Positions 1,465-22,743 of a stretch of DNA of 64,000 nucleotides are shown here, in pieces. The notes beneath the pieces were generated by a model, which searched no databases, was not told the DNA's origin, and worked only from the letters and a program-made list of their open reading frames with translations. Origin of the DNA: Halichondria panicea. Taxonomy: Eukaryota > Porifera > Demospongiae > Suberitida > Halichondriidae. The number at the start of each line of letters is the position of its first letter. Position 1 is the stretch's first letter. The translations under genes and the position numbers were made by a program. Location: the NCBI RefSeq assembly GCF_963675165.1, contig NC_087382.1, positions 4,131,963 through 4,195,962 of the forward strand, read 5' to 3'.

Positions 1465-1599
1465 GGCATATACTTTGCTGATTAATTATAGCCAGTGTGT
1501 CTATTTGTGGTTGCTAAGCTGTGCGTGTGCACGTCTACCTGCTGATTCAGTATCAGAGAGTTGAGTTTCAATCAGGATGGATTTATTGTATACACATAC

Positions 1600-2900
1600 C
1601 TTGTGGTCGGGGGTCAATAGACGCATCACTTGTGGGTATTTCTGCTTCAAGTTCCTGAATGTACTTTCCAGCTATAATGATGATAACAATTCTTACTTGA
1701 AATCTGGTATGCATGCACGCACCACTTACCTAGTTTTGGACAAAGAGATTTCGCCAGTAAATAATACTTCTCTTTACAAAGAATTTTGATAAATTGAGGG
1801 AAGTTTTGTGCCGGAAAAAGCTTGATTTGGGCCTCAACTGCCGATAGTAGTTGCAAGGCACGTTTGCACGATGGATGAAAGTCATTCGCTGCATTGTCCC
1901 GCACTTCAGCTGTTACCAGACCAACATCATGAAGTCTTTCACCAAACGTTGTAGGGTAAGTGATTCCTTGTGCTAAGTTGAAGAAGTTCCTCCGAAAAAC
2001 AGCAGCCTCATCATTATCATCTATACAAGATGACAAATATGGGCATTATCAACTAAAGCGCCACATGCAGAATCGATATTTCAACATAATTATTATATAA
2101 ACTACTGATTTTGAGGAAATTCAATTTTAAAAGGTTCTGTCCACTTACACGTAAGAATTTCAATTTTGAGACTAACTTTATAGGGTTGTTATCAGGGGCC
2201 CTGTAATTTACAACTTACGAGTCTTTTCTTCCCCCATAATTATATAAGTGTTTTTGACCGGCAAGACTTGTTTCCTTATTGTTATAGGTAACTGTAAATG
2301 TGACAATGAAAGCTGACAAAGAAAACTGACAAAGTGCTTAACCACTGAAAGTTTGTCTTTGCCGCTTTTTATCTTTGTATCAAGTTCTTCTTTAAACTCA
2401 AAGGTTAGTGTACGAAATTTGTCGTCAAATTCTTTTATCTGTAGTCTAATTTCCTCAAAACAGTGAGAAATCGAGCTGATAGTGGATCTATAATTATGTG
2501 GATGCATGGGGGTTGATAATAACAAGATGGGCCGGCAAAATGTCTGTGATGTAATTACCCTTATGTATAATAATTATATGCAAACTTTATGCTGCATTAA
2601 TTTACGGCTATATAATTAGAGTCCCAAAGACATTTATTTTTTCCATATGCATAGACTGTCACACAATTGTATCATGCATATGGTTGTTTTACTAAAGATT
2701 GAAGGCTTAAATTTGAAGTTTTATATACCTGCAGGCTTATACCATGCATGTAGCTGTCTGCTCGTGCACATCCATGCATAATTATGAGTATATTATTATA
2801 TATACTTAGTAAGCATCTTCATTGAGAGTAGTTATTGGGGCGAGCGTAGCGAGCCTTATCTTAGTGACCTCGGTAGACAATTTCTCTGTATGTATGTATG

Positions 2901-2931
<31 letters not shown>

Positions 2932-5311
2932 TGGTACGTACGGTACGGCCTGATAGCTGGTTTTTACACACGCAGTCCTTACCAATTTCTTGTATTTTGC
3001 ACAACTGGAGGCATAAGAAAAAGTTGCATAAAATGAATCCTGACAACGAACGCAAACAAGAAAGGCTTTGAATAAGGAGGGATCGAGAGAGACAAGCAAG
3101 AGCCCAAGAAACAGCTGACACAGAGACTCCTGAGGCCAGGCAGGCACGCCTACAGCAAATGGCTGCTTCCACCCAAACCAGCAGAGCTTCAGGTAAGTAC
3201 AGGCGGCGTAAAGGTGAGTGTAATTTTCATTACAGAGACTCCTGAGGCCAGACAGGCACGCCTACAGCAAATGGCTGCTTCAACTCAAACCAGCAGAGCC
3301 TCGGGTAAGTGCCACTTGTCAGTGGCGTTCATGATGATAAGCCAGTGTTTTTTTTTCTACAGAGACTCCTGAGGCCAGACAGGCATGCTTGGAACAAGAC
3401 AGGCATAGGTATTCACAACACATAGATGTGAACCACCTGTACTGCTAACACGCTCGCCCCATGACACCTTGTGTCACCCTAGTATAGCTGTCTGTAACCA
3501 TTATAATTGTCAGTTGAACTTATTATGGGAATTCCATGCACTATCGAGAAACCACTCGGCTGCCGTGTCAAACTACTGTAGCGTGTAAATCTATTATATA
3601 TTAAGGCCATAGCTCAACAATCTTGTATTGTGGAATTCTGAGTGAGTCACCATGCAGTGTATTGATAAAATGTCAAGGTTTACAACTCTATAGCTGGGGC
3701 ATATACCTTGCTGATTAATTATAGCCAGTGTGTCTATTTGATGGTTGCTAAGCTGTGCGCGTGCACGTCTACCTGCTGATTCAGCAGTATAAGAGAGTTG
3801 AGTTTCAATCAGGATGGATTTATTGTATGCACGTACCTTGTGGTCGGGGGTCAATAGACGTATCACTTGTGTGTATTTCTGCTCCCTGAATGTACTTTTC
3901 AGCTATAATATATAATGATGATAACAATTCTTACTTGAAATCTGGCATGCATGCATGCACTTACCTAGTTTTGAACAAAGAGATGTCGCCAGTAAATAAT
4001 AGCACTTCTCTTCACAAAGAATTTTGATAAATTGAGGGAAGTTTTGTGCCGGATAAAGCTTGATTTGGGCCTCAACTACCGATAGTAGTTGTAAGACACG
4101 TTTGCAAGGTGGATGAATCTCATTTGCTGCATTGTCCCGCACTTCAGCTGTTACCAGAAAAGCAGCATAAAGTCTGGCACCAAACACTCCAGGGTCAGTG
4201 ATTCCTTGTGCCAACTTGAAGAAGTTCCTCCGAAAAACAGCAGCCTCATCTTTATCATCTATACAAGATGACAAATATGGGCATTATATCAACTAATGTG
4301 CCACATGCTATTATGAGACATCAACATCTTTTGGATCCCCCTGTTTTACAGTATTCCTAAGGAAGCCAAACTAGTCTCTTCACTAACAACCATGGTCAAT
4401 AAGCTTTGCATGAAAGCAAAAAATTTCAAGTGAAAGTGTTTTGTTTGCAACTGATTTTAGTGATTGCGGTGGATGTTATGAGACAGGGGAGGTATTACGA
4501 GACACCATTGTAATTAACACTAATTGACTATGTCTGGCATATCTTGAAATACAGTCCTCCTTCTCCTACAAAAACAGTTACTCTTGTGGTAACAGATACC
4601 AATGAATTTACTATAAATTATTTCTCACCCACTTAAATACTTAATTGGAGAAAGCATTTTAATTGACCGTATACACTTCAATCATTGAGGCTGATAGTCA
4701 ACAAAAATTAAATCCGTGAATTCTTTTTATAATTCTATCATCATTGACAGTGACTAATCTGAGCATTTACGAATCTTTTTTTCGATCCCCTATAATTATA
4801 AATTATAAATCAGTTATTTTTTGACCGGCAAGACTTGTTTTTCCTTATTGTTATAGGTAACTGTAAATGTGACAATGAAAGCTGACATCAAGTCGTTTGT
4901 TATCACTGACAGGAATAGGGTTATTTATGAACTGTTTATTTAATAGTGTTAGTCACATTATTTTGTTGGAGTTATAATTAGTGGTTATTTATATAAATTA
5001 TATTCATGCATATAGCTATAATTATGCATGTATAGGCAGACCACAGTATAATTATTTATACCTTTGTTGGATACGAGCCTTAGTTGAATGATTGAGCCAT
5101 CGGACACAGCGTAGTTAGAAAGTTTCTTGTCATCTTTCATGAGTTGCCCGGTGTGCGTCAGCTCTTGTTGGTCCTCGGCAAATCCAACTTGAGAGAAGAT
5201 AAATTCTTTCACTTTCTTTACAGTGTCATCTTGTCGAACCTTCCAAGATATGGAGCACTGGAAGTCACAAGCAGACTCCAATACCACTGTTATATTACAC
5301 TTGATATCCAT
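1600..5311 (-). CDS. Copy A (partial): UBL-CARD-CARD part of the UBL/CARD/PITH gene family
   Basis: Only the 5' part of this copy lies in the window. Exons read by eye: UBL 5062-5311 (ATG at 5309-5311), CARD-like 3965-4258, linker 3837-3902, second CARD-like 1730-2020, second linker 1600-1671. The UBL exon ends in phase 1, and every CARD and linker exon begins and ends in phase 1, so all can be joined in frame. The UBL has the ubiquitin pattern DTVKKVKEFI, DQQELTHTG, KKLSNYAVSDGS and IQLRLV, and no C-terminal Gly-Gly. The CARD exons read as a helical death fold (AAVFRRNFFKLAQGITDP, then FPQFIKILCEEKCYYLLA). By comparison with copy B, the module and PITH exons should lie left of base 1; an extra stretch at about 60-940 pushes them out. 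All visible exons are open. Confidence 0.7.
2325..2487 (-). pseudogene. Truncated relic of the WSYINYSLL-module exon (copy A)
   Basis: This matches the first ~55 codons of the module exon at 7374-8119. It keeps the 3' splice site and the LTFEFKEELDTKIK stretch. An extra base just after the LTV codons shifts the frame early, and the homology stops at about VKHFVS, where it joins intron-like sequence also found near 4813-4887. It lies between the two CARD exons, as expected if CARD, linker and the start of the next exon were duplicated together. Probably skipped in splicing. Confidence 0.6.
2837..3461. mobile_element. Element bounded by GGGGCGAGCG inverted ends, with repeated exon-like units
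   Basis: Left end GGGGCGAGCG (2837), right end CGCTCGCCCC (to 3461). It contains a TATG microsatellite (about 2889-2930) and, on the plus strand, three tandem units starting AGACTCCTGAGGCCAGRCAG (near 3155, 3236 and 3361). Two have a clear 5' splice site (GGTAAGT) and two a 3' splice site (TTACAG, CTACAG). The units read TPEARQARLQQMAAS, a charged repeat style I know from transposon-encoded proteins. The matching intron sites near 8430 and 17915 lack the element. Confidence 0.55.
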
Positions 5312-6361: not shown

Positions 6362-9300
6362 TTATTGGTAGCGACTCCAAGGACATGATGGCACCTCTTT
6401 AAACTCTGACATGTCCAGCCATTCCACTGGGTTTCCATAGAGACCAATATGGTTGATCACTGTGGTGGCCTTGTTACCTTGATTGTCCTTGACAAAGATC
6501 TGCGTTGGCATTTGTATGTATGTATGCATGTATGATCAGTGTGTGCTTAGAACGTAAACTTATGCAGACAACAGTATAACAAAGCAGGCTACATAATTAC
6601 CGTTAGATTCTTGACATTCTGATACTTGACAAAGTTTAGCTGGATTGATGAATCGTGAGCAACATCCTCTTCGGAAAGTCTGAGAGAGCAGAAGCGATTA
6701 AGAGTGTATAATTATGCATGGATAATAATTGCTATAGGCTTACTCAAGCTCTTCCACTGGAGTTCTTTGTTGTGCTTGGGCAAAGTCCAGTGTGATTGGC
6801 TATAATACATACATTTTTATGTTAGGATAATTATACGCCGATCAATGCTATTGTAATTGTAAGCTTAATTTAGCCAACAATGCATGGCTTTTGCATGTTC
6901 ATGACAGCTGTAATAAGAAATTGACTATAGTTACATATACCTGATTGATAAAGAGCCTCAGAGTCTTTGGAGCACATCCATCCAAGGGTCCTGTCAGCTG
7001 AATTGAGTGGAGCTTCACTGGGCTTTGAAATTCAAAGGAGATGATCAGCTGTTCATTGCAATCTGACTCGAGATACTGCAACGGTCCAGGTTTAAGTGCG
7101 TGTGTGAAAGGGTGATCATCCATTTCATTCAAGCATTCGCATTTTCTGCAGTCCAGAAAGTTTTTCAGGTTTTGCTGCAGTTAATGACAAAAGTAAACTA
7201 AAGAAGCTGTCACTCTTGAAAGCTATATATATAGCTTTACAGATATCATTCAGTATAATGATGATATAAACTCACTTGCTCTGGAATACTGATTTCATCA
7301 AGTACCTGTATATGACAAATTAAGTAACACAATTATTTTACTACCATGCATTATAAGAACATGAATTGCGTACATTTTCATCATAAATTCTTTCTCCTCC
7401 AATATCCAGTCGTTCAATGTTGCGAGTGTGGCAAAAGATCTCAATAGGCTCCCGCTTGATCAAAGACAGTAAACCTACTTCAAATTGTACTGGGAGCCAC
7501 CATTCAATAAAGATCGATCCTGTCTCAAGATTATGGAGCAATAGAGCACAATCAGACAAGTGATAAGCAGAGCAGAAGTCCTTGCGTAACAGGTGCAGGT
7601 CTTCAAGAGTGCAATGAGAAGCATCTTTGTCAAGCTTTGCCCTAACTCTAACGAATTTACTTTCTGCTTCCGACATTACTTTTTCGTCACAATCAGCCCC
7701 CCGTATCTCAACAAATTTACTCACAGTTGTTCGCTCCCGAAACGATTTCATGTCTTCATCGTATCGTTCCATTTTTAACTTAAGCGCATCACTGGCTAAC
7801 TTCCTTATCAAATAGAGCAACAAGCTGTAATTGATATATGACCAGTAGGTGTTTAATTTATAGAAAAGTTCTTCGATATCCTTATCTTTGAACTTTTTAT
7901 CCTCAACAATCGCTTCCACAAATGTTTTATGCTCAGGCTTAATATCCTCAGGCAAGATACTGACAAAGTGCTTAACCTTTGAAAGTTTTTCTTTGCCGCC
8001 TTTTATCTTTGTATCAAGCTCTTCTTTAAACTCAAAGGTTAGTGTACGAAATTCGTCGTCAAGTTTTTCTATCTGTAGTCTAATTTTCTCAACAGTGAGA
8101 AATTGAGCTGATAGTGGATCTATATGTGGATGCATGGGGGTTGATTGTAACAAGATAGGCCGGCAAAAATTAATGCCTGTGATGTAATTACCCTTATCTA
8201 TATAAGCGTAATAATTATATGCAAACTTTACGCTGCATTAATTTACGGCTAATTAGAGTCCCAAAGACATCGATATTTTTCCTATGCATGGACTGTCACA
8301 CAATTGTATCATGGTTGCTTCACTAAAGATGGAAGGCTTAAATTTGAAGTTTTATGCAACTATTACCAGGCTTACCATGCTGTCTGCCCGTGCACATCCA
8401 TGCATAATTATGAGTATAATCTTTATTGAGAGTAGCTATAGGAACCAGTGTGACGTATATTAAATGGTATTCATAGCTGTTTGTAACCAATTATCAGTTG
8501 AACTATAAGTGTGTCCTTGTGCAATTCCACTATCGAGAAACCATGCACTTGGCTGCCATGTCAAACTACTGCTACATGTACATGTGTAAAACGCCCACAT
8601 CTCAAGTGGCCTATACAACCGCAATCAAAACAGTGTGGTTAATTACATGCATTGACTAGCTCTTGCACAACAAGGCCTAAGCAAAGCAAAAGTGTGGCTA
8701 TAGCTCTTGCCAAGAGTGCATTCATGCGTTCCTGCTCTTGCACAATGCCTAAGCAAAGTAAAAAAAGAAACACAGCAAAGCAACTGCATGTGTAGAAGTC
8801 GCCAAAAAGCTTGCCACTGAAAATAATACATTTATAAAATTAACTGAAGAAGTACAGAAGTACCACAACTATAGAGATGTACTGAGAGAAAACAGGCTTG
8901 TAATTATGGTTTGGTGAAGCTAGGTAACCACAGTTTACATTACTATTAGTGTTTGTGGCATATAGTAACGAATTTATATGGTGTGTATAGTAGTTGCTTA
9001 CTCCTCTTCATGTACTCCTGATTAAGGCCATAGCTCAATAAGTGTATTGTGGAATTCTGAGGGAGTCACCAGTGTATTGATAAAGGGTCAAGGTTTATTA
9101 CATTCATCAACTCTAGCTGGGGCATCATTGGCGGATCTAGGATTCTTGAAAGGGGGAGTTCCAGTAGCACAGTCAGTTGAGCGGGACAAAAACTCTAAAT
9201 TTTACCTAAAAAAAAGCTCGTCACTTCTACTAAACAATCAGTATGCGCAATACATTACCTGTCAGCACTGCAGTAATTTTAACAGTCTGCATTCAGCCTT

Positions 9301-10932
9301 TTAGTCACTAAAACTGCACAAACAAGCCTTCACAGGACTTGCAAGAACTAAAAGTAAGTGATAAGTGCATATAAAAGTAGAAAGAAAAACTAGCTATATA
9401 GCTATAGTGCCATAGTCTAGTGTAGTGGCTTCAGCCTCCCACTCACTTATGTCTCAGAGGGGGGTTCAATTGAACCCAAATAACCCCCTCTGGATCCGCC
9501 ACTGGGCATATACCTTGCTGATTAATTGTAGCCAGTGTGTCTATTTGATGGGTGCTAAGCTGTGCGCGTGCACGTCTACCTGGTGATTCAGTATCAGATA
9601 GTTAGTTTCAATCAGGATGGATTTATTGTATGCACGTACCTTGTGGTCGGGGGTCAATAGACATATCACTTGTGGGTATTTCTGCTTCAAGTTCCTGAAT
9701 GTACTGTTCAGCTATAATGATGATAACAATTCTTAGTTGAAATCTGGTATGCATGCACGCACCACTTACCTAGTTTTGGACAAAGAGATTTCGCCAGTAA
9801 ATAATACTTCTCTTTACAAAGAATTTTGATAAATTGAGGGAAGTTTTGTGCCGGAAAAAGCTTGATTTGGGCCTCAACTGCCGATAGTAGTTGTAAGACA
9901 CTGACACGTCTGCACGATGGATGAATGTTTTCCGCTGCCTTGTCCCGCAATTCAGCTGTTATCAGAGAAGCAGCATAAAGTCTGGCACCAAACACTCCAG
10001 GGTTAGTGATTCCTTGTGCCAAGTTGAAGAAGTTCCTCCGAAAAACAGCAGCCTTATCTTTATCATCTATACAAGATGACAAATATGGGCATTATTAACT
10101 AAAGCGCCACATGCAGAATCGATATTTCAACATAATTATTATATAAACTACTGATTTTGAGGAAATTCAATTTTAAAAGGTTCTGTCCACTTACACGTAA
10201 GAATTTCAATTTTGAGACTAACTTTATAGGGTTGTTATCAGGGGCCCTGTAATTTACAACTTACGAGTCTTTTCTTCCCCCATAATTATATAAGTGTTTT
10301 TGACCGGCAAGACTTGTTTCCTTATTGTTATAGGTAACTGTAAATGTGACAATGAAAGCTGACAAAGAAAACTGACAAAGTGCTTAACCACTGAAAGTTT
10401 GTCTTTGCTGCTTTTTATCTTTGTATCAAGTTCTTTTTTAAACTCAAAGGTTAGTGTACGAAATTTGTCGTCAAATTCTTTTATCTGTAGTCTAATTTCC
10501 TCAAAACAGTGAGAAATCGAGCTGATAGTGGATCTATAATTATGTGGATGCATGGGGGTTGATAATAACAAGATGGGCCGGCAAAATGTCTGTGATGTAA
10601 TTACCCTTATGTAATAATTATATGCAAACTTTATGCTGCATTAATTTACGGCTATATAATTAGAGTCCCAAAGACATTTATTTTTTCCATATGCATAGAC
10701 TGTCACACAATTGTATCATGCATATGGTTGTTTTACTAAAGATTGAAGGCTTAAATTTGAAGTTTTATATACCTGCAGGCTTATACCATGCATGTAGCTG
10801 TCTGCTCGTGCACATCCATGCATAATTATGAGTATATTATTATATATACTTAGTAAGCATCTTCATTGAGAGTAGTTATTGGGGCGAGCGTAGCGAGCCT
10901 TATCTTAGTGACCTCGGTAGACAATTTCTCTG

Positions 10933-10963
<31 letters not shown>

Positions 10964-13332
10964 TGGTACGTACGGTACGGCCTGATAGCTGGTTTTTACA
11001 CACGCAGTCCTTACCAATTTCTTGTATTTTGCACAACTGGAGGCATAAGAAAAAGTTGCATAAAATGAATCCTGACAACGAACGCAAACAAGAAAAGCTT
11101 TGAATAAGGAGGGATCGAGAGAGACAAGCAAGAGCCCAAGAAACAGCTGACACAGAGACTCCTGAGGCCAGGCAGGCACGCCTACAGCAAATGGCTGCTT
11201 CCACCCAAACCAGCAGAGCTTCAGGTAAGTACAGGCGGCGTAAAGGTGAGTGTAATTTTCATTACAGAGACTCCTGAGGCCAGACAGGCACGCCTACAGC
11301 AAATGGCTGCTTCAACTCAAACCAGCAGAGCCTCGGGTAAGTGCCACTTGTCAGTGGCGTTCATGATGATAAGCCAGTGTTTTTTTTTCTACAGAGACTC
11401 CTGAGGCCAGACAGGCATGCTTGGAACAAGACAGGCATAGGTATTCACAACACATAGATGTGAACCACCTGTACTGCTAACACGCTCGCCCCATGACACC
11501 TTGTGTCACCCTAGTATAGCTGTCTGTAACCATTATAATTGTCAGTTGAACTTATTATGGGAATTCCATGCACTATCGAGAAACCACTCGGCTGCCGTGT
11601 CAAACTACTGTAGCGTGTAAATCTATTATATATTAAGGCCATAGCTCAACAATCTTGTATTGTGGAATTCTGAGTGAGTCACCATGCAGTGTATTGATAA
11701 AATGTCAAGGTTTACAACTCTATAGCTGGGGCATATACCTTGCTGATTAATTATAGCCAGTGTGTCTATTTGATGGTTGCTAAGCTGTGCGCGTGCACGT
11801 CTACCTGCTGATTCAGCAGTATAAGAGAGTTGAGTTTCAATCAGGATGGATTTATTGTATGCACGTACCTTGTGGTCGGGGGTCAATAGACGTATCACTT
11901 GTGTGTATTTCTGCTCCCTGAATGTACTTTTCAGCTATATAATGATGATAACAATTCTTACTTGAAATCTGGCATGCATGCATGCATGCACTTACCTAGT
12001 TTTGGACAAAGAGATTTCGCCAGTAAATAATAGCACTTCTCTTCACAAAGAATTTTGATAAATTGAGGGAAGTTTTGTGCCGGATAAAGCTTGATTTGGG
12101 CCTCAACTACCGATAGTAGTTGTAAGACACGTTTGCAAGGTGGATGAATCTCATTTGCTGCATTGTCCCGCACTTCAGCTGTTACCAGAAAAGCAGCATA
12201 AAGTCTGGCACCAAACACTCCAGGGTCAGTGATTCCTTGTGCCAACTTGAAGAAGTTCCTCCGAAAAACAGCAGCCTCATCTTTATCATCTATACAAGAT
12301 GACAAATATGGGCATTATATCAACTAATGCGCCACATGCTATTATGAGATATCAACATCTTTTGGATCCCCCTGTTTTACAGTATTCCTAAGGAAGCCAA
12401 ACTAGTCTCTTCACTAACAACCATGGTCAATAAGCTTTGCATGAAAGCAAAAAATTTCAAGTGAAAGTGTTTTGTTTGCAACTGATTTTAGTGATTGCGG
12501 TGGATGTTATGAGACAGGGGAGGTATTACGAGACACCATTGTAATTAACACTAATTGACTATGTCTGGCATATCTTGAAATACAGTCCTCCTTCTCCTAC
12601 AAAAACAGTTACTCTTGTGGTAACAGATACCAATGAATTTACTATAAATTATTTCTCACCCACTTAAATACTTAATTGGAGAAAGCATTTTAATTGACCG
12701 TATACACTTCAATCATTGAGGCTGATAGTCAACAAAAATTAAATCCGTGAATTCTTTTTATAATTCTATCATCATTGACAGTGACTAATCTGAGCATTTA
12801 CGAATCTTTTTTTCGATCCCCTATAATTATAAATTATAAATCAGTTATTTTTTGACCGGCAAGACTTGTTTCCTTATTGTTATAGGTAACTGTAAATGTG
12901 ACAATGAAAGCTGACATCAAGTCGTTTGTTATCACTGACAGGAATAGGGTTATTTATGAACTGTTTATTTAATAGTGTTAGTCACATTATTTTGTTGGAG
13001 TTATAATTAGTGGTTATTTATAAAATTATGTTCATGCATATAGCTATAATTATGCATGTATAGGCAGACAGTTAATTTATACCTTTGTTGTGTACGAGCC
13101 TTAGTTGAATGTTTGAGCCATCTAACACAGCGTAGTTAGAGAGTTTCTTGTCATCTTCCATAAGTCGTCCAATGTACGTCAGCTCTTGTTGGTCCTCGGC
13201 AATTCCAACTTGAGAGAAGATAAATTCTTTCACTTTCTTTACAGTGTCATCTTGTCGAACCTTCCAAGATATGGAGCACTGGAAGTCACAATCAGACTCC
13301 AATACCACTGTTATATTACACTGGATATCCAT
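6362..13332 (-). CDS. Copy B (complete): UBL-CARD(-CARD)-WSYINYSLL module-PITH protein
   Basis: Exons: UBL 13083-13332; CARD-like 11996-12289; linker 11869-11934; CARD-like 9770-10066; linker 9640-9711; module 7374-8119; 30-nt exon 7276-7305; PITH exons 6941-7174, 6744-6799, 6601-6679 and 6362-6499, with TAA at 6362-6364. Phases agree at every join. The protein would be about 753 residues with both CARD units or about 630 with one. The module contains LNTYWSYINYSLL and TGSIFIEWWLP, a pattern I associate with sponge and cnidarian death-fold proteins. The PITH domain is clear: CECLNEMDDHPF, QYLESDCNEQLIISFEF, LRLFINQ, LDFAQAQQRTPVEELE, VKDNQGNKATTVINHIG, and a C-terminal PSCPWSRYQ. In TXNL1 this domain binds the 26S proteasome; here the thioredoxin domain is replaced by UBL and CARD. 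There is no signal peptide, so it is probably cytosolic. The role is inferred. Confidence 0.8.
8120..9639. other. Copy B intron between linker and module exons
   Basis: It contains the inverted-repeat element at 9126-9504 and an imperfect direct repeat at about 8655-8765 (phrases GCTCTTGCACAA and CCTAAGCAAAG). The stretch 8160-8580 matches 17620-18010 in copy C. I see no further exon. Confidence 0.5.
9126..9504. mobile_element. Same inverted-repeat element in copy B
   Basis: Orthologous to the element at 1095-1464, at the same site with the same GGCAT flanks. It was therefore present before copies A and B were duplicated. The left end has one change (CATTGGCGG). Confidence 0.7.
10371..10533 (-). 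pseudogene. Truncated relic of the WSYINYSLL-module exon (copy B)
   Basis: Near-identical twin of the relic at 2325-2487, with the same 3' splice site, early frameshift and break after VKHFVS. It lies between the two CARD-linker pairs of copy B. If spliced in, it would end the protein after about 17 residues, giving a UBL-CARD short form; otherwise it is skipped. The shared damage shows that the internal duplication predates the duplication that made copies A and B. Confidence 0.6.
10881..11505. mobile_element. Second copy of the GGGGCGAGCG-bounded element
   Basis: Near-identical to 2837-3461 and carried along in the A/B duplication. The TATG microsatellite is shorter here, consistent with slippage after duplication. 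The three plus-strand exon-like units are preserved. Confidence 0.55.
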
Positions 13333-15470: not shown

Positions 15471-18400
15471 CCCCAAACATCTTTGACAAAGAACTTTGCT
15501 GCGAGCATGAAGAGGGTGTGTGTGCTATGCTGCAGAATTTGAGGGGGTGGGGCTGCTCCAGTTAGCTTCGATTTTTTTCTAATAGAACGCTTTGCTGTCA
15601 GCCTGGGTTTAGATTCACACACTGAAATCAGGTGATCTTTCCTATAGATCTACAATAACCACTCTCACACACACTACAGATGATTCATGTGTTGGCTATA
15701 AAATGCAGTTTCACAAAACTCAGTCAATACAACTGAGATAGTTACAGAAAAATACGTAAAATGCAGAATAATAATTATTAATGCTATACTGAATTATACA
15801 AAAACTGATTATTAAATGGTGCAATTGATTATTGGTAGCGACTCCAAGGACATGATGGCACCTCTTTAAACTCTGACATGTCCAGCCTTTCCACTGGGTT
15901 TCCATAAAGACCAATATGGTTGATCACTGTGGTGGCCTTGTTACCTTGATTGTCCTTGACAAAGATCTGCGTTGGCATTTGTATGTATGTATGTATGTAT
16001 GATCAGTGTGTGCTTAGAACGTAAACTTATGTAGACAACAGTATAACAAAGCAGGCTACATAATTACCGTTAGATTCTTGACATTCTGATACTTGACAAA
16101 GTTTAGCTGGATTGATGAACCGTGAGCAACATCCTCTTCGGAAAGTCTGAGAGAGCAGAAGCGATTAAGAGTGTATAATTATGCATGGATAATAATTGCT
16201 ATAGGCTTACTCAAGCTCTTCCACTGGAGCTCTTTGTTGTGCTTGGTCAAAGTCCAGTGTGATTGGCTATAATACATATATTTTTATGTTAGGATAATTA
16301 TATGCCGATCAATGCTATCATTGTAAGCCTAATTTACCCAACAATGCATGGCTTTTGCATGTTCATGACAGCTGTAATAAGAAATTGACTATAGTTACAT
16401 ATACCTGGTTAATAAAGAGCCTCAGAGTCTTTGGAGCACATCCATCCAAGGGCCCTGTCAGCTGAATTGAGTGGAGCTTTACTGTGCTTTGAAATTCAAA
16501 GGAGACGATCAGCTGTTCATCGCAATCTGACTCGAGATACTGCAATGGTCCAGGTTTAAGTGCGTGTGTGAAAGGGTGATCATCCATTTCATTCAAGCAT
16601 TCGCATTTTCTGCAGTCCAGAAAGTTTTTCAGGTTTTGCTGCAGTTAATGACAAAAGTAAACACATTCCGTATAAAGAAGCTGTCACTCTTGCAAGACAG
16701 ATATATATATATCAGCATAATGATGATAAACTCACTTGCTCTGGAATACTGATTTCATCAAGTATCTGTGTAATTAGTAACACAATTATTTTTACTTTAC
16801 TACTACATTATAAGAACATGAATTGTAAAAATTAATTACAATTTCGTCGTGAATTATTTCTCCTCCAATATCCAGTCGTTCAATGTTGCGAGAGATACAA
16901 AAGACCTCAATAGGCATTCGCTTGATCAAAGACAGTAAACCTACTTCAAATTGCACTGGGAGCCACCATTCAATAAGGATCGACCCCGTCTCAACATTAT
17001 AGAGCAATAGGGCGCAATCAGACAAGTGATAAGCTGCGCAGAAGTCCTTGCGTAACAAGTGAAGGTTTTCAAGAGTGCAATGAGAAGTATCTTTGTTAAG
17101 CTTTGCCCTAACTCTAACGAATTTATTTTCAGCTTTCGACATTAAATCCTCATCACAATCAGCCCCTCGTATCTCAACAAATCTACTCACAGTCGTTCGC
17201 TGCCGAAATGATTTCATGTCTTCATCGTATCGTTCCATTTTTAACTTAAGCTTATCACTGGCTAACTTCTTTATCAAATAGAGCAACAAGCTGTAATTGA
17301 TATATGACCAGTAAGTGTTTAATTTATAGAAAAGTTCTTCGATATCAGTATCTTGAACATTTTATCCGTAACAATCGCTGTCACAAATCTTTTATGCTCA
17401 GGCTTAATATCCTCAGGCAAGACACTGACAAAGTGTTTAACCTTTGAAAGTTTTTCTTTGCCGCCTTTTATCTTTGTATCAAGCTCTTCTTTAAACTCAA
17501 AGGTTAGTGTACGAAATTCGTCGTCAAGTTCTTCTATCTGTAGTCTAATTTTCTCAACAGTGAGAAATTGAGCTGATGGTGGATCTATATGTGGATGCAT
17601 GGGGGTTGATTGTAACAATTAAGATGGGCCGGCAAAATGTCTGTGATGTAATTATACCCTTATCTATATAAGCGTATAATAATTATATGCAAACTTTACG
17701 CTCCATTAATTTACGGCTAATTAGAGTCCCCAAAACATTGATTTTTTTTCTGCATGGACTGTCACACAATTGTATCATGCATGCATGGTTGCTTCACTAT
17801 AAAGATTGAAGGCTTAAATTTGAAGTTTTTAAAACTGTTACCAGGCTTACCATGCATGCATGCTGTCTGCCCATGCACATCCATGCATAATTATGAGTAT
17901 AATCTTTATTGAGAGTAGCTATAGGAACCAGTGACGTATCAAATGGTATATTCATAGCTGTCTGTAACCAGTTGAACTATAAGTGTTCTTGTGCAATTCC
18001 ACTATCTTATACTAAGTGTATTATGGAATTCTGAGGGAGTCACCAGTGTATTGATAAAGGGTCAATGTTTATTACTCTAGCTGGGGTATATACCTTGCAT
18101 GCTGATTAATTGTAGCCAGTGTGTCTAGTAGCATTGTTTGATGGTTGCTAAGCTGTGCGCATGCACATCTACCTACTGATTCAGTATCAGATAATTAGTT
18201 TCAATCAGGATGGATTTATTGTATGCACATACCTTGTGGTTGGGGGTCAATAGATGTATCACTTGTGGGTATTTCTGCTTCCCGAATGTACTTTTCAGCT
18301 ATATTATAATGATGATAACAATTCTTACTTGAAAAATCTGGTGTGCATGCATGCACTTACCTAGTTTTGGACAAAGAGATTTCGCCAGTAAATAATAGCA

Positions 18401-18958
18401 CTTCTCTTCACAAAGAATTTTGATAAATTGAGGGAAGTTTTGTGCCGGATAAAGCTTGATTTGGCCCTCAACTACCGATAGTAGTTTTAAGACACGTGTG
18501 CAAGGTGGATGAAAGTCATTCGCTGCAATGTCCCGCACTTCAGCTGTTATCAGACAAGCAGCATAAAGTCTGGCACCAAATGTTGTTGGGTCAGTGATTC
18601 CTTGTGCTAAGTTGCAGTAGTTCCTCCGAAATGCAGCAGCCTCATCATTATCATCTATACAATTATATACAAGATGACAAATATGGGCATTATCAACACA
18701 ACATTAAAAGTGCCACAGAATCAATATTTCAACATAATTATCAACTACTGATTTTGAGGAAATTCAGGTTCTATCCACTTACACGTAGGAATTTCAATTT
18801 TGGAACTACTTATTTGTAGAGTTGTTATGAGAGGTCCAGTCATTGACAGTGACTAATTTGAGCATTTACGAGTCTTTTCTTCCCCCCATAATTATAGGAA
18901 TTGACTGGCAAGACTTGTTATGCCTCGGTGCGCATGCGCAAGCGAGGTATATACGGTA

Positions 18959-21793
18959 CACTGCAAAAACACTTTTGTTAATTTAACAAACAAAAGTTTG
19001 TCCCGGTGATGAATCTCACATGACAGAATAATATTTGTTAGAATGACAAAGGTAAAACAATCTACAATGTTTTGTCATTCAAGCAAAGAAATTATGCCAA
19101 AACAACAAAGTATTATGTCATCTGAATTTCACCAATTTATTGTACTTCTATGTCAAAATAGCAAAGTGAATGCTGAATTAACACTGCTATAAAGTGAATT
19201 TCTTTGTTAAATTAACACCATACCTTTGTCATTTAATTAGTTGTTTTCTCGCGCACGTACGCACATGCAGAAGGTCAAACGGTATTAGAACAATGAGTTT
19301 ATGATAGAATAAGATCACTGGATCACATGACATGCAGCACAATACATTTCTTCTGTCAGTAAATTGTTTTTAGTGTTCATCACTTAGCGTTTCTTGAAAT
19401 TCCAGTACAGTGAACTGCAGGCGTTTCGTTTGGTTTCATGAACGCTACATCCCTCAGATCATTTTCGTCACAATAAGCCCCTACAGAACAAAAGATTGAA
19501 GTCACTATAGTTACCAACACATATGTAGTGCAAAATGTAAATAGTATAAGCTATCACCCCCATGGACGAAGTTGACCAGTGTAACTGACACGTGAGGACA
19601 CATATACACACAAACTCGTAAATCAGTATGCTATAGCTATCACCCCATGGACGAAGTTGACCAGTCGAAACCAGTGTAACTGACACGTGAGGACACATAC
19701 ACACAAAATCGTAAATCAGTATGCTAGCTATCACCCCATGGACAAAGTTGACCAGTCGAAACCAGTGTAACTGACACATGAGGACACATACACACAAACT
19801 CGTAAATCAGTATGCTAGCTATCACCCCATGGACGAAGTTGACCAGTCGAAACCAGTGTAACTGACACGTGAGGACACATACACACAAACTCGTAAATTA
19901 CAATGCTAACTATCACCCCATGGACGAAGTTGACCAGTCGAAACCAGTGTAACTGACGCATGAGGACACATACACACAAACTGGTAAATTACAATGCTAG
20001 CTATCACCCCATGGACGAAGTTGACCAGTCGAAACCAGTGTAACTGACGCATGAGGACACATACACACAAACTCGTAAATTACAATGTTAGCTATCACCC
20101 CATGGACGAAGTTGACCAGTCGAAACCAGTGTAACTGACGCATGAGGACACGTACACACAAACTGGTAAATTACAATGCTAGCTATCACCCCATGGACGA
20201 AGTTGACCAGTCGAAACCAGTGTAACTGACACGTGAGGACACATACACACAAACTCGTAAATCAGTATGCTAGCTATCACCCCATGGACGAAGTTGACCA
20301 GTCGAAACCAGTGTAACTGACACATACACACAAACTCGTAAATCAGTATACTAGCTATCACCCCATGGACGAAGTTGACCAGTCGAAACCAGTGTAACTG
20401 ACACATGAAGACACAAACTCGTAAATCAGTATGCTACAGATGAAGGTCGAAACCAGGGACAGTTGCCCTCTAGCTAGCTATATAGTTTTATGGATGACAT
20501 AACTTGCAAGTCGTTTCTTTGAAGTCGATGAAGGTGGTTAAGTAGACTCCTAGCTGGTACACATTGTGGGGCCGAGGTACGGTAAAATCTGCAGCTGGAA
20601 GAAACACGTAAACACATTTATTTAGCAATGAGCAACATAACTTAAATCCTTTTTCTTTGAAGCTGGTACATGGTGGAGTTATACGCCGATACGGTATAGC
20701 AGTGATTTGTAAACTGTGAATTCAGAGAGTTTTGGGATCATGTACATGCCATGCGCCAACAGCATGCAATGGAACTTAACTTTTTTCTTTGAGATGGTGG
20801 TACTATCTACTCTTTAAGAAAATCTGAAAGAGAGTATTGGGCAATAAGTTGAGTTTAGCAATGAGCACTGACTAACTTGCAATTATCTTTTCTTTCAAGC
20901 TGCAGATGCAGGTGACTCTTGACTCCTAGATCCTAGCTGGTGTACATGGAACATGGTAGCCCACTGCCAGGGCCAGGGGTACAGGCATGCAGTCAGTGAT
21001 GGTATAAAGCTGCATGAGCAGCTGCAGTCTGGTGCAGCTGCAAGCACCATGTGCTAAGTATGTTTGAGGCCTTGCCCTATTATTCCTGAACGCCCCCTCA
21101 TGCCACACCTATAGTTCCAGCTTATAATTATAGTCTAGAGGCCAAACTCTCCTTATCAGAATCTGGCCTCGAGACTAGCTAGAGTTAGAGGCTAGAGAGA
21201 AGGTAGCCTCGATCCCAGGCCGCTCTTCAGGCCAGGCCTTGTGAAGGAGGTTAGAGAGAAGGCTGCCTGCACTGCACTGCACTGAAGGACTCTGGAGGCT
21301 CCTGACTTCTTCACTGCCACTGTAACTTACCATGCCCAGTCACAAGTCTCCAATTGCTACATACACAATTGAACATGAGCATGCAAAGATATAAGCATCA
21401 GGGCAACTGAGATGTTTCAGTGTAGACAATTTATTACGAGCTAGGGTAATCGAAAAATCAGCAATGCAAACTTGCACGTATCTTTTAGTAGAGTTCTAGC
21501 TGTAACTTTATAATTTGTTATTGTCACACATTAATGTTAATTTGACAATGAACGATAACTTCCACTAAATGTGAGATCAACAACGCTTCGACAAAATGAC
21601 AACACATGTGTTCAAATAACAATCTACCATTATAATAACAAATATTAATAGTTAGATAAACTATATTAATAGTTAAATAAACTATGATTTGTCGTTACAA
21701 CAATAATTGCAGGAAATTGACAAACGTTTTGTCAAGATAACATTTTGTGCCGGTAGCAAACTGTGTCACAATAACAAAAGTGTTTTTGCAGTG
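18959..21793. mobile_element. Inner inverted-repeat element with TA target site
   Basis: The ends CACTGCAAAAACACTTTTGT and its reverse complement are near-perfect, each flanked by TA (18957-18958 and 21794-21795). The subterminal 200-300 bp at both ends are rich in TTGTNA/TAACAAA words. It contains the minisatellite at 19551-20445. No transposase is visible, so it is non-autonomous. The TA duplication fits the Tc1/mariner-like group but does not prove it. Confidence 0.6.
19551..20445. repeat. Minisatellite, about ten units of roughly 90 bp
   Basis: Each unit includes CTATCACCCCATGGACGAAG, TTGACCAGTCGAAACCAGTG, TAACTGACACGTGAGGACAC and ACACACAAACTCGTAAAT. Units are 84-92 bp with occasional deletions (for example near 20320). 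Because 90 is a multiple of three, long open frames appear by chance on the minus strand. There are no unique spacers, so this is not a CRISPR. Confidence 0.85.
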
Positions 21794-21794
21794 T

Positions 21795-21866
<72 letters not shown>

Positions 21867-22240
21867 CTATTTCAGCTGCTCAAGGATCAATAAAGTGCAA
21901 GTAAGAGTTTCTATAGGCTTCTAGTCATGTTTTTTTGGCATGCTATTTGTGGATTTGCAAAATAAAGCTTCGTTCTCGAGTTATGCCTAGTTTTGCTTAC
22001 TTGGAATGCCATTGCAGCCTTTTCAGAAGAGTCCATAGCAAAACTTGTTCACCGAGTGTTGCTACTCTACTTAGTAGTTAGCTCTGCACTAGAACACTAG
22101 CTATTGGTAGCTGCAAGAGTGAGAAGAGAGCTGAAGGCTCTGCTGACTTGCAGCCATTAATTTTAGACTTTAACTTTTGGCATCGATCGTTTTTAACAAC
22201 AATCATGGTCGATAATTACCCACTATTTGCTAGCTAGTAG
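20446..22240. other. Non-coding remainder of the copy C nested insertion
   Basis: Between the minisatellite and the copy C UBL exon I see only element sequence, the (TG)n run and unique AT-rich DNA. No splice-consistent exon was found. Confidence 0.4.
21795..21862. repeat. (TG)n microsatellite
   Basis: A run of TG dinucleotides of nearly 70 bp directly abuts the right end of the inner element. Confidence 0.9.
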
Positions 22241-22743
22241 TTTTATGTTATGTAGCTTTGGCACCTCCACCGAGGCATCAGCACCCGCGGTGCTTTCATT
22301 TCCTTATTGTTATAGATAACTGTAAATGTGACAATGAAAGCTGCCACCAAGTCGTTTGTTATTACTGACAATAATATGGTTTTTTTTATGAACTGTTTAT
22401 TAGTCACATTATTTTGTTGGAGGTATAAAATTATGTTCATGCATATAGCTATATGCATGTATATAGGCAGACCACAGTATAATTGTTGGTTTATACCTTT
22501 GTTGGATACGAGCCTTAGTTGGATGGTTGAGCCATCTGACACAGCGTAGTTAGAAAGTTTCTTGTCATCTTTCATGAGTTGCCCGGTGTGCGTCAGCTCT
22601 TGTTGGTCCTCGGCAAATCCAACTTGAGAGAAGATAAATTCTTTCACTTTCTTTACAGTGTCATCTTGTCGAACCTTCAAAGATATGGAGCACTGGAAGT
22701 CACAAGACTCCAATACCACATCACATTTGATATCCATGTACAT

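What the first reader, a model, noticed from the sequence alone, without database searches (positions are those of the whole stretch)
6362..13332. New domain combination: UBL + CARD-like + WSYINYSLL module + PITH in one gene
Seen: compatible exon phases (1-1-1-1-0-0-0-2-0) and clean GT-AG sites join a ubiquitin-like exon, CARD-like exon(s), a linker, a module exon and a complete PITH domain. The same order recurs in copy C. Known: PITH of TXNL1 docks on the 26S proteasome, many UBL domains bind proteasome subunits, and CARD domains build signalling complexes. Inference: a death-fold adaptor with a proteasome-docking end, perhaps bringing immune or death complexes to the proteasome. I know of no described protein with this set of domains. 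This is my main candidate for an undescribed system.
Basis: partly seen in the sequence, partly recalled or inferred. Interest (0 to 1): 0.85.

Follow-up and report, generated by a model that had tools for sequence, protein, structure and literature searches.

The report
Death-fold-type gene with PITH tail
In an animal genome, three neighbouring gene copies, one with a fully open reading frame, appear to join a ubiquitin-like part, a CARD-like part, a module shared with immune-type genes, and a piece of the proteasome-binding protein TXNL1; neither a joined transcript nor a proteasome link is proven.

Summary
In copy B (13332-6362, minus strand) the exons, GT-AG sites and phases 1-1-1-1-0-0-0-2-0 are there and join into an open frame of 652 aa, or 797 aa with a second CARD-like set. 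UBL and PITH pass Pfam cut-offs. The CARD-like exon has no significant sequence match; a low-confidence model leans to CARD/death folds. New here: the module exon belongs to a genome-wide family (49 hits, 43 outside this cluster) lying between a Death-like exon with a phase-1 donor and a changing partner such as NACHT or kinase. The PITH exons match the host TXNL1 gene (234/56/79 nt, same phases). So this looks like a domain-shuffled death-fold gene whose partner was replaced by the TXNL1 PITH. Module-PITH as one transcript is nearly forced (68-nt intron, no start codon before the PITH); UBL-CARD to module is likely, but an in-frame ATG before the module keeps two genes possible. Copy C is frame-broken, copy A damaged. 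The proteasome idea is weakened: TXNL1 R234 and terminal His, and ubiquitin's I44/V70, are lost. New combination in my searches; function unproven.

The parts
13083..13332 (-). copy B e1: start codon and UBL, donor phase 1
   Evidence: PF00240 E 1.8e-13; GT donor
11996..12289 (-). copy B e2: CARD-like six-helix exon, phases 1-1
   Evidence: no significant Pfam, NCBIfam or PDB sequence match; AF2 model pLDDT 58.8, best Foldseek hit a CARD at E 1.7; 5 matches in the genome, all in this cluster
11869..11934 (-). copy B e3 linker, phases 1-1
11739..11804 (-). copy B e4 linker, phases 1-1
9770..10066 (-). copy B e2': second CARD-like exon, phases 1-1
   Evidence: 85% identical to e2 as protein; long splice open
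9640..9711 (-). copy B e3' linker
9514..9579 (-). copy B e4' linker
7374..8119 (-). copy B e5: module exon, acceptor phase 1, donor phase 0
   Evidence: 49 genome hits, 6 of them in this cluster; phases as in most paralogs
7276..7305 (-). copy B e6: probable remnant of a TXNL1 linker exon (ends SIPEQ; host TXNL1 exon ends TIPGQ), phases 0-0
6941..7174 (-). copy B e7: PITH exon, 234 nt as in host TXNL1
6744..6799 (-). copy B e8: PITH exon, 56 nt as in host TXNL1
6601..6679 (-). copy B e9: PITH exon, 79 nt as in host TXNL1
6362..6499 (-). copy B e10: last PITH exon and stop, 138 nt (host TXNL1 135); tail ends SRYQ, no terminal His
10371..10533 (-). copy B: truncated copy of the 5' part of the module exon inside an intron; meets a stop if read in phase
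1474..5311 (-). copy A, the part inside the window: UBL 5311-5062, CARD-like 4258-3965 and 2020-1730, linkers, truncated module 2487-2325; its module and PITH lie left of the window
15829..22737 (-). copy C: UBL 22737-22497, CARD-like 18654-18361, e3 18298-18233, e4 18172-18094 (79 nt), module 17584-16840 (1-nt deletion), PITH 16765-15829; not intact

Best explanation
Copy B is one gene of a death-fold family of this animal whose members are built as Death-like exon, phase-1 linker, module exon, and an exchangeable C-terminal partner. In this small tandem subfamily the front is a UBL plus one or two CARD-like domains, and the partner is a PITH domain taken, introns included, from the 3' half of a TXNL1 gene at a phase-0 intron. 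Inferred mechanism: the CARD-like and UBL front assembles with other death-fold proteins, the module couples that state to the C-terminus, and the PITH is the binding arm, most likely still for the proteasome lid but more weakly than TXNL1. Shown: exon anatomy, domain matches, family phases, TXNL1-like exon structure. Inferred: the single transcript, the CARD fold, and all of the function.
For: Open splice with matching phases. Module paralogs, 22 loci examined: 20 of 20 located Death-like exon donors are phase 1; 15 of 20 located module acceptors are phase 1; 18 of 18 located module donors are phase 0 (sites located by patterns I wrote after reading, and many loci come from one tandem array, so they are not independent). 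Partners: NACHT E 4e-13 in the same open frame (L038); protein kinase E 9.5e-23 in the following exon (L018). PITH exons 234/56/79 nt with the phases of host TXNL1, 54% protein identity for copy B. PITH needs an upstream exon: the e5-e6 intron is 68 nt and the first Met of e6-e10 lies inside the domain match. Indels among copies in UBL and CARD-like exons are 3 or 6 nt. Purifying trends, uncorrected: PITH A-B 6 of 12 changes synonymous (expected 22%, P 0.029), module B-C 20 of 54 (P 0.008).
Against: No RNA. An in-frame ATG lies just upstream of the module exon in all three copies, and copy A lost the acceptor AG used in B while keeping that ATG frame. Five of 20 located module acceptors are not phase 1; they lie in copies whose frame is interrupted before the match. 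In L031 and L038 the module runs on into the partner without an intron. Between A and B the UBL and module exons (93.6 and 93.7%) are less conserved than 8 of the 9 introns compared. UBL and CARD-like exons show no purifying signal; linkers have 1 synonymous of 10 changes in A-C and in B-C; e2' between A and B has 2.5 of 25. None of the P values survives correction for the 14 comparisons. Copies A and C are damaged. R234 and the terminal His are lost in all three copies and D162 in B.
Confidence: 0.6

Rival explanations
1. Two genes: a UBL-CARD(-CARD) gene, and a separate module-PITH gene starting at the ATG that lies 16 nt before the module exon of copy B.
For: In-frame ATG present in A, B and C; the 6-nt loss in A removes the acceptor but keeps the ATG frame; the 300 nt before e5 are 98.0% (B-A) and 95.3% (B-C) identical; reading past e4 gives a stop after a short tail.
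Against: Most module paralogs have a phase-1 acceptor at this boundary and a Death-like exon with a phase-1 donor upstream, which fits splicing from e4 or e4'. In A another AG just downstream is in phase (648-aa frame).
Confidence: 0.25
2. One gene, but the PITH is a decoy or scaffold arm (bait for something that attacks TXNL1 or the proteasome) rather than a proteasome dock.
For: The zinc-binding terminal His and R234 are lost in all three copies while the PITH is otherwise kept; partners of the module differ among genes.
Against: E136, N139, M275 and F278 are kept in all three copies and D162 in two; nothing shows a decoy directly.
Confidence: 0.2
3. A decaying tandem cluster: only B is fully readable and may itself be losing function.
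For: C has two frame lesions; A has lost an acceptor and an e4' frame; the CARD-like exons look unconstrained.
Against: B is open in both splices; PITH and two of three module comparisons show purifying trends. Some 1-nt lesions could be assembly errors.
Confidence: 0.2

Closest known systems
TXNL1 (thioredoxin + PITH)
   Same: PITH domain; exon lengths 234/56/79 and phases shared with the host TXNL1 gene; E136, N139, M275, F278 kept
   Different: no thioredoxin domain found; preceded by the module; terminal His and R234 lost
PITHD1 (PITH alone)
   Same: PITH domain without thioredoxin
   Different: a separate host gene at C2, named PITHD1 by eye, with other exons and tail
DEATH/CARD-NACHT genes (NLRs) of sponges
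   Same: L038 of this genome has a module in one open frame with NACHT; the Dysidea avara NLR paper PMC12909245 (passages read) reports CARD and DEATH fronts and lists UBQ in a figure legend of NLR architectures
   Different: no NACHT in the pieces scanned here; PITH instead

Membership tests
PITH domain / TXNL1 family | PITH domain over curated cut-off | tested here: met
   158.4 bits against 23.7
PITH domain / TXNL1 family | N-terminal thioredoxin domain | tested here: not met
   a 68-nt intron separates PITH exons from the module; no thioredoxin match in the four pieces scanned; linkers e3 and e4 not scanned
PITH domain / TXNL1 family | residues named or mutated in the TXNL1-proteasome papers: E136, N139, D162, R234, M275, F278, H289 | tested here: inconclusive
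   A and C 5 of 7, B 4 of 7, host TXNL1 6 of 7
Ubiquitin-like domain | ubiquitin fold by profile | tested here: met
   PF00240 50.5 bits against 25.4
Ubiquitin-like domain | I44/V70 surface for proteasome receptors (role recalled, not from a call) | tested here: not met
   T and R at these positions in A, B and C, aligned with a host ubiquitin unit
CARD | CARD profile match | tested here: not met
   0 Pfam families at E <= 1
CARD | six-helix death fold | tested here: inconclusive
   six helices, pLDDT 58.8, pTM 0.52; 0 of 32 Foldseek matches at E <= 0.001; best is the CARD9 CARD at E 1.7; 16 of 32 titles are CARD or death-domain proteins, 16 are not
Death-like/module/partner family of this genome | module sequence with phase-1 acceptor and phase-0 donor | tested here: met
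Death-like/module/partner family of this genome | preceded by a death-fold exon with phase-1 donor | tested here: inconclusive
   phase met; the fold of the CARD-like exon is only weakly supported
NLR | NACHT domain | tested here: not met
   none in the four pieces scanned
One gene | one transcript over all domains | not testable with these tools
   no RNA data held

The most novel reading that the evidence does not exclude
A death-fold adaptor or receptor that, once assembled through its CARD-like and UBL front, brings the 26S proteasome to an immune or death complex through a PITH arm captured from TXNL1: a direct physical link between death-fold signalling and the proteasome lid that my searches did not find described.
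Probability: 0.2. Interest if true: 0.8.

Novelty: new variant of a known kind. Interest (0 to 1): 0.5.

Why it matters
It shows at exon level how a death-fold gene family of an animal can exchange its C-terminal partner for part of a housekeeping proteasome cofactor, apparently by recombination in introns of the same phase. It also points to a module with no Pfam match that links Death-like exons to NACHT, kinase and PITH partners. If the protein docks on the proteasome, it would be a new route from death-fold complexes to protein degradation.

Tried and rejected
Sequence searches of the CARD-like exon: Pfam 0 families at E <= 1, NCBIfam 0 at E <= 0.1, PDB 0 with e2+e3 and 2 unrelated profile hits at E 0.44 and 0.66. 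Of the module: Pfam 0, NCBIfam 0, PDB 0 and 1 unrelated profile hit at E 0.67. The module model is too poor to use (pLDDT 45.5) and was not compared with structures. Module relatives outside this genome: none confirmed among 111 pattern stretches in genome contigs and 112 in viral contigs; metagenome contigs were not open to me. I took the C-terminal exon of the C8 array for caspase-like by eye; the one I tested (L014) had no Pfam match over cut-off, so it is not used as evidence. A peptidase C1 search meant to test 'sponge' through silicatein gave 77 hits but no DNA to read, so I did not identify the animal. dN/dS between copies is of limited value because the copies look mosaic. In some searches the copy C module was taken 2 nt short at its 3' end; this lies after the stops that I report.

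Literature: searches 'PITH domain' with 'ubiquitin-like' (9 papers listed; two opened in passages), 'domain architecture' (1 listed, not opened), 'death domain' (1 listed, on a cyanotoxin, not opened) and 'sponge' (0), and 'TXNL1', 'proteasome', 'PITH' (9 listed), showed no listing of PITH on a death-fold protein. Two further searches on sponge death-fold genes listed 20 of 339 and 2 of 2; of these only PMC12909245 was opened, in passages. The library holds open-licence PMC papers only.
Full report
Observation. The window is C6:4131963-4195962 of a 131 Mb genome in 39 contigs. On the minus strand copy B has thirteen candidate exons between 13332 and 6362. All its junctions are GT-AG. They join with phases 1-1-1-1-0-0-0-2-0 into a 652-aa frame, or 797 aa with the second CARD-like set. 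Pfam finds ubiquitin in e1 (1.8e-13) and PITH in e6-e10 (1.8e-46); the CARD-like and module exons match no family at E <= 1. The linkers e3 and e4 were not scanned.

Three copies. Copy A (from 5311 leftwards past the window edge) and copy C (22737-15829) have the same exons in the same order. A and B have a second CARD-like set, with a truncated module exon between the sets; C has neither. Copy C is frame-broken in e4 (79 nt instead of 66) and e5 (1-nt deletion). Copy A needs a shifted acceptor for an open short splice with an AG (648 aa), and its e4' breaks the frame when included.

The module. It has 49 hits in the genome, 6 in this cluster and 43 elsewhere; aligned paralogs outside the cluster are 22-35% identical. 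I examined 22 paralog loci: located Death-like exon donors are phase 1 in 20 of 20, located module acceptors phase 1 in 15 of 20, located module donors phase 0 in 18 of 18. The five other acceptors (L022, L027, L029, L035, L036) lie in copies whose frame is interrupted before the match. Many of these loci come from one tandem array, and I wrote the search patterns after reading the sequences, so the counts describe a shared structure and are not independent trials. The front exon of L015 matches Death weakly (E 0.0023, below cut-off); the fronts of L018, L034 and L038 gave no match. Partners after the module: NACHT in the same open frame (L038, E 4e-13), a protein kinase in the next exon (L018, E 9.5e-23), a weak Death match (L034, E 0.0066, below cut-off). 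The genome has 102 scored NACHT matches out of 265 candidates. Copy B's e2 (donor phase 1), e3 and e4 (1-1) and e5 (1-0) fit this scheme.

The PITH. PITH matches lie at three places: this cluster, C5 and C2 (8 exon matches). C5 is TXNL1 (thioredoxin-like and PITH exons, tail ending GERH) and C2 looks like PITHD1, both named by eye. The TXNL1 PITH exons are 234, 56 and 79 nt with the phases of e7, e8 and e9; the last is 135 nt against 138. The short e6 ends like the TXNL1 linker exon (SIPEQ / TIPGQ). PITH of B is 54% identical to host TXNL1 and 43% to human TXNL1 residues 123-281. The simplest history is that the 3' half of a TXNL1 copy, introns included, was joined in phase 0 behind a module exon.

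One gene or two. Module and PITH almost certainly share a transcript: the intron between them is 68 nt and e6-e10 have no Met before the domain. UBL-CARD to module is inferred from phases and family precedent. Against it, an in-frame ATG sits just before the module exon in all copies, and A lost the acceptor AG used in B. I put one gene at about 0.75; this is a judgement.

Function. Two 2025 papers on TXNL1-bound proteasomes (PMC12700798, PMC12700817; passages read) name or mutate E136, N139, D162, R234, M275, F278 and H289. B has E, N, N, N, M, F and no terminal His; A and C keep D162; host TXNL1 differs only at R234. Four or five of seven at 43% background identity is weak evidence. The UBL has T and R at ubiquitin positions 44 and 70. 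Docking is possible, probably weaker than in TXNL1, and untested. The CARD-like exon gives six helices at low confidence; of 32 structure matches at E <= 10, none reaches 0.001, the best is the CARD9 CARD (E 1.7), and 16 of 32 titles are CARD or death-domain proteins.

Selection (uncorrected, 14 comparisons that are not independent; none survives correction). Synonymous changes: PITH A-B 6 of 12 (P 0.029), A-C 6 of 12 (0.029), B-C 6 of 14 (0.064); module A-B 12 of 47 (0.29), A-C 16 of 48 (0.041), B-C 20 of 54 (0.008); UBL 4 of 16, 3 of 6 and 6 of 18 (none below 0.1); CARD e2 A-C 5 of 24 and B-C 5 of 22 (as neutral); e2' A-B 2.5 of 25, a deficit at P 0.036 or 0.106 by rounding. Linkers: 1 of 10 in A-C and in B-C, in part through the indels of C e4. 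Between A and B, the UBL and module exons differ more than 8 of 9 introns compared, which points to mosaic copies. Between B and C, e1 is 92.5% identical and the first 300 nt of its intron 73.3%.

Verdict. A domain-shuffled death-fold-type gene: a new variant of a known kind and a new combination as far as my searches reach. The mechanism is inferred.

Noticed in passing
window 29207-63372, minus strand: Array of roughly 15 fibrinogen-C genes with short leader exons, counted by eye; two tested, PF00147 E 6.3e-36 and 5.1e-33.
   Followed up: partly
window 27927-24499, minus strand: Exons of a FAD enzyme resembling geranylgeranyl reductases (TIGR02032 E 2.4e-16 and 1.8e-12 per exon, below the whole-protein cut-off); to my knowledge (recalled) unexpected in an animal.
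   Followed up: partly
window 15268-14705, minus strand: Protein kinase N-terminal fragment (PF00069 E 6.1e-13 on 15268-14939; the rest by eye) between copies B and C.
   Followed up: partly
window 10533-10371 and 2487-2325, minus strand: Truncated module exons inside copies B and A; in B followed by sequence like intron 1 (by eye): probably the scar of the internal duplication.
   Followed up: partly
C8:6715024-6756438 (loci L014-L017, L019-L022, L024-L026, L029, L035): Tandem array of Death-like/module genes with a C-terminal exon; one such exon tested (L014), no Pfam match over cut-off.
   Followed up: partly
window 10066-9770 and 2020-1730, minus strand: Second CARD-like exons of B and A differ by about 22.5 nonsynonymous and 2.5 synonymous changes: possibly diversifying selection, not significant after correction.
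   Followed up: partly
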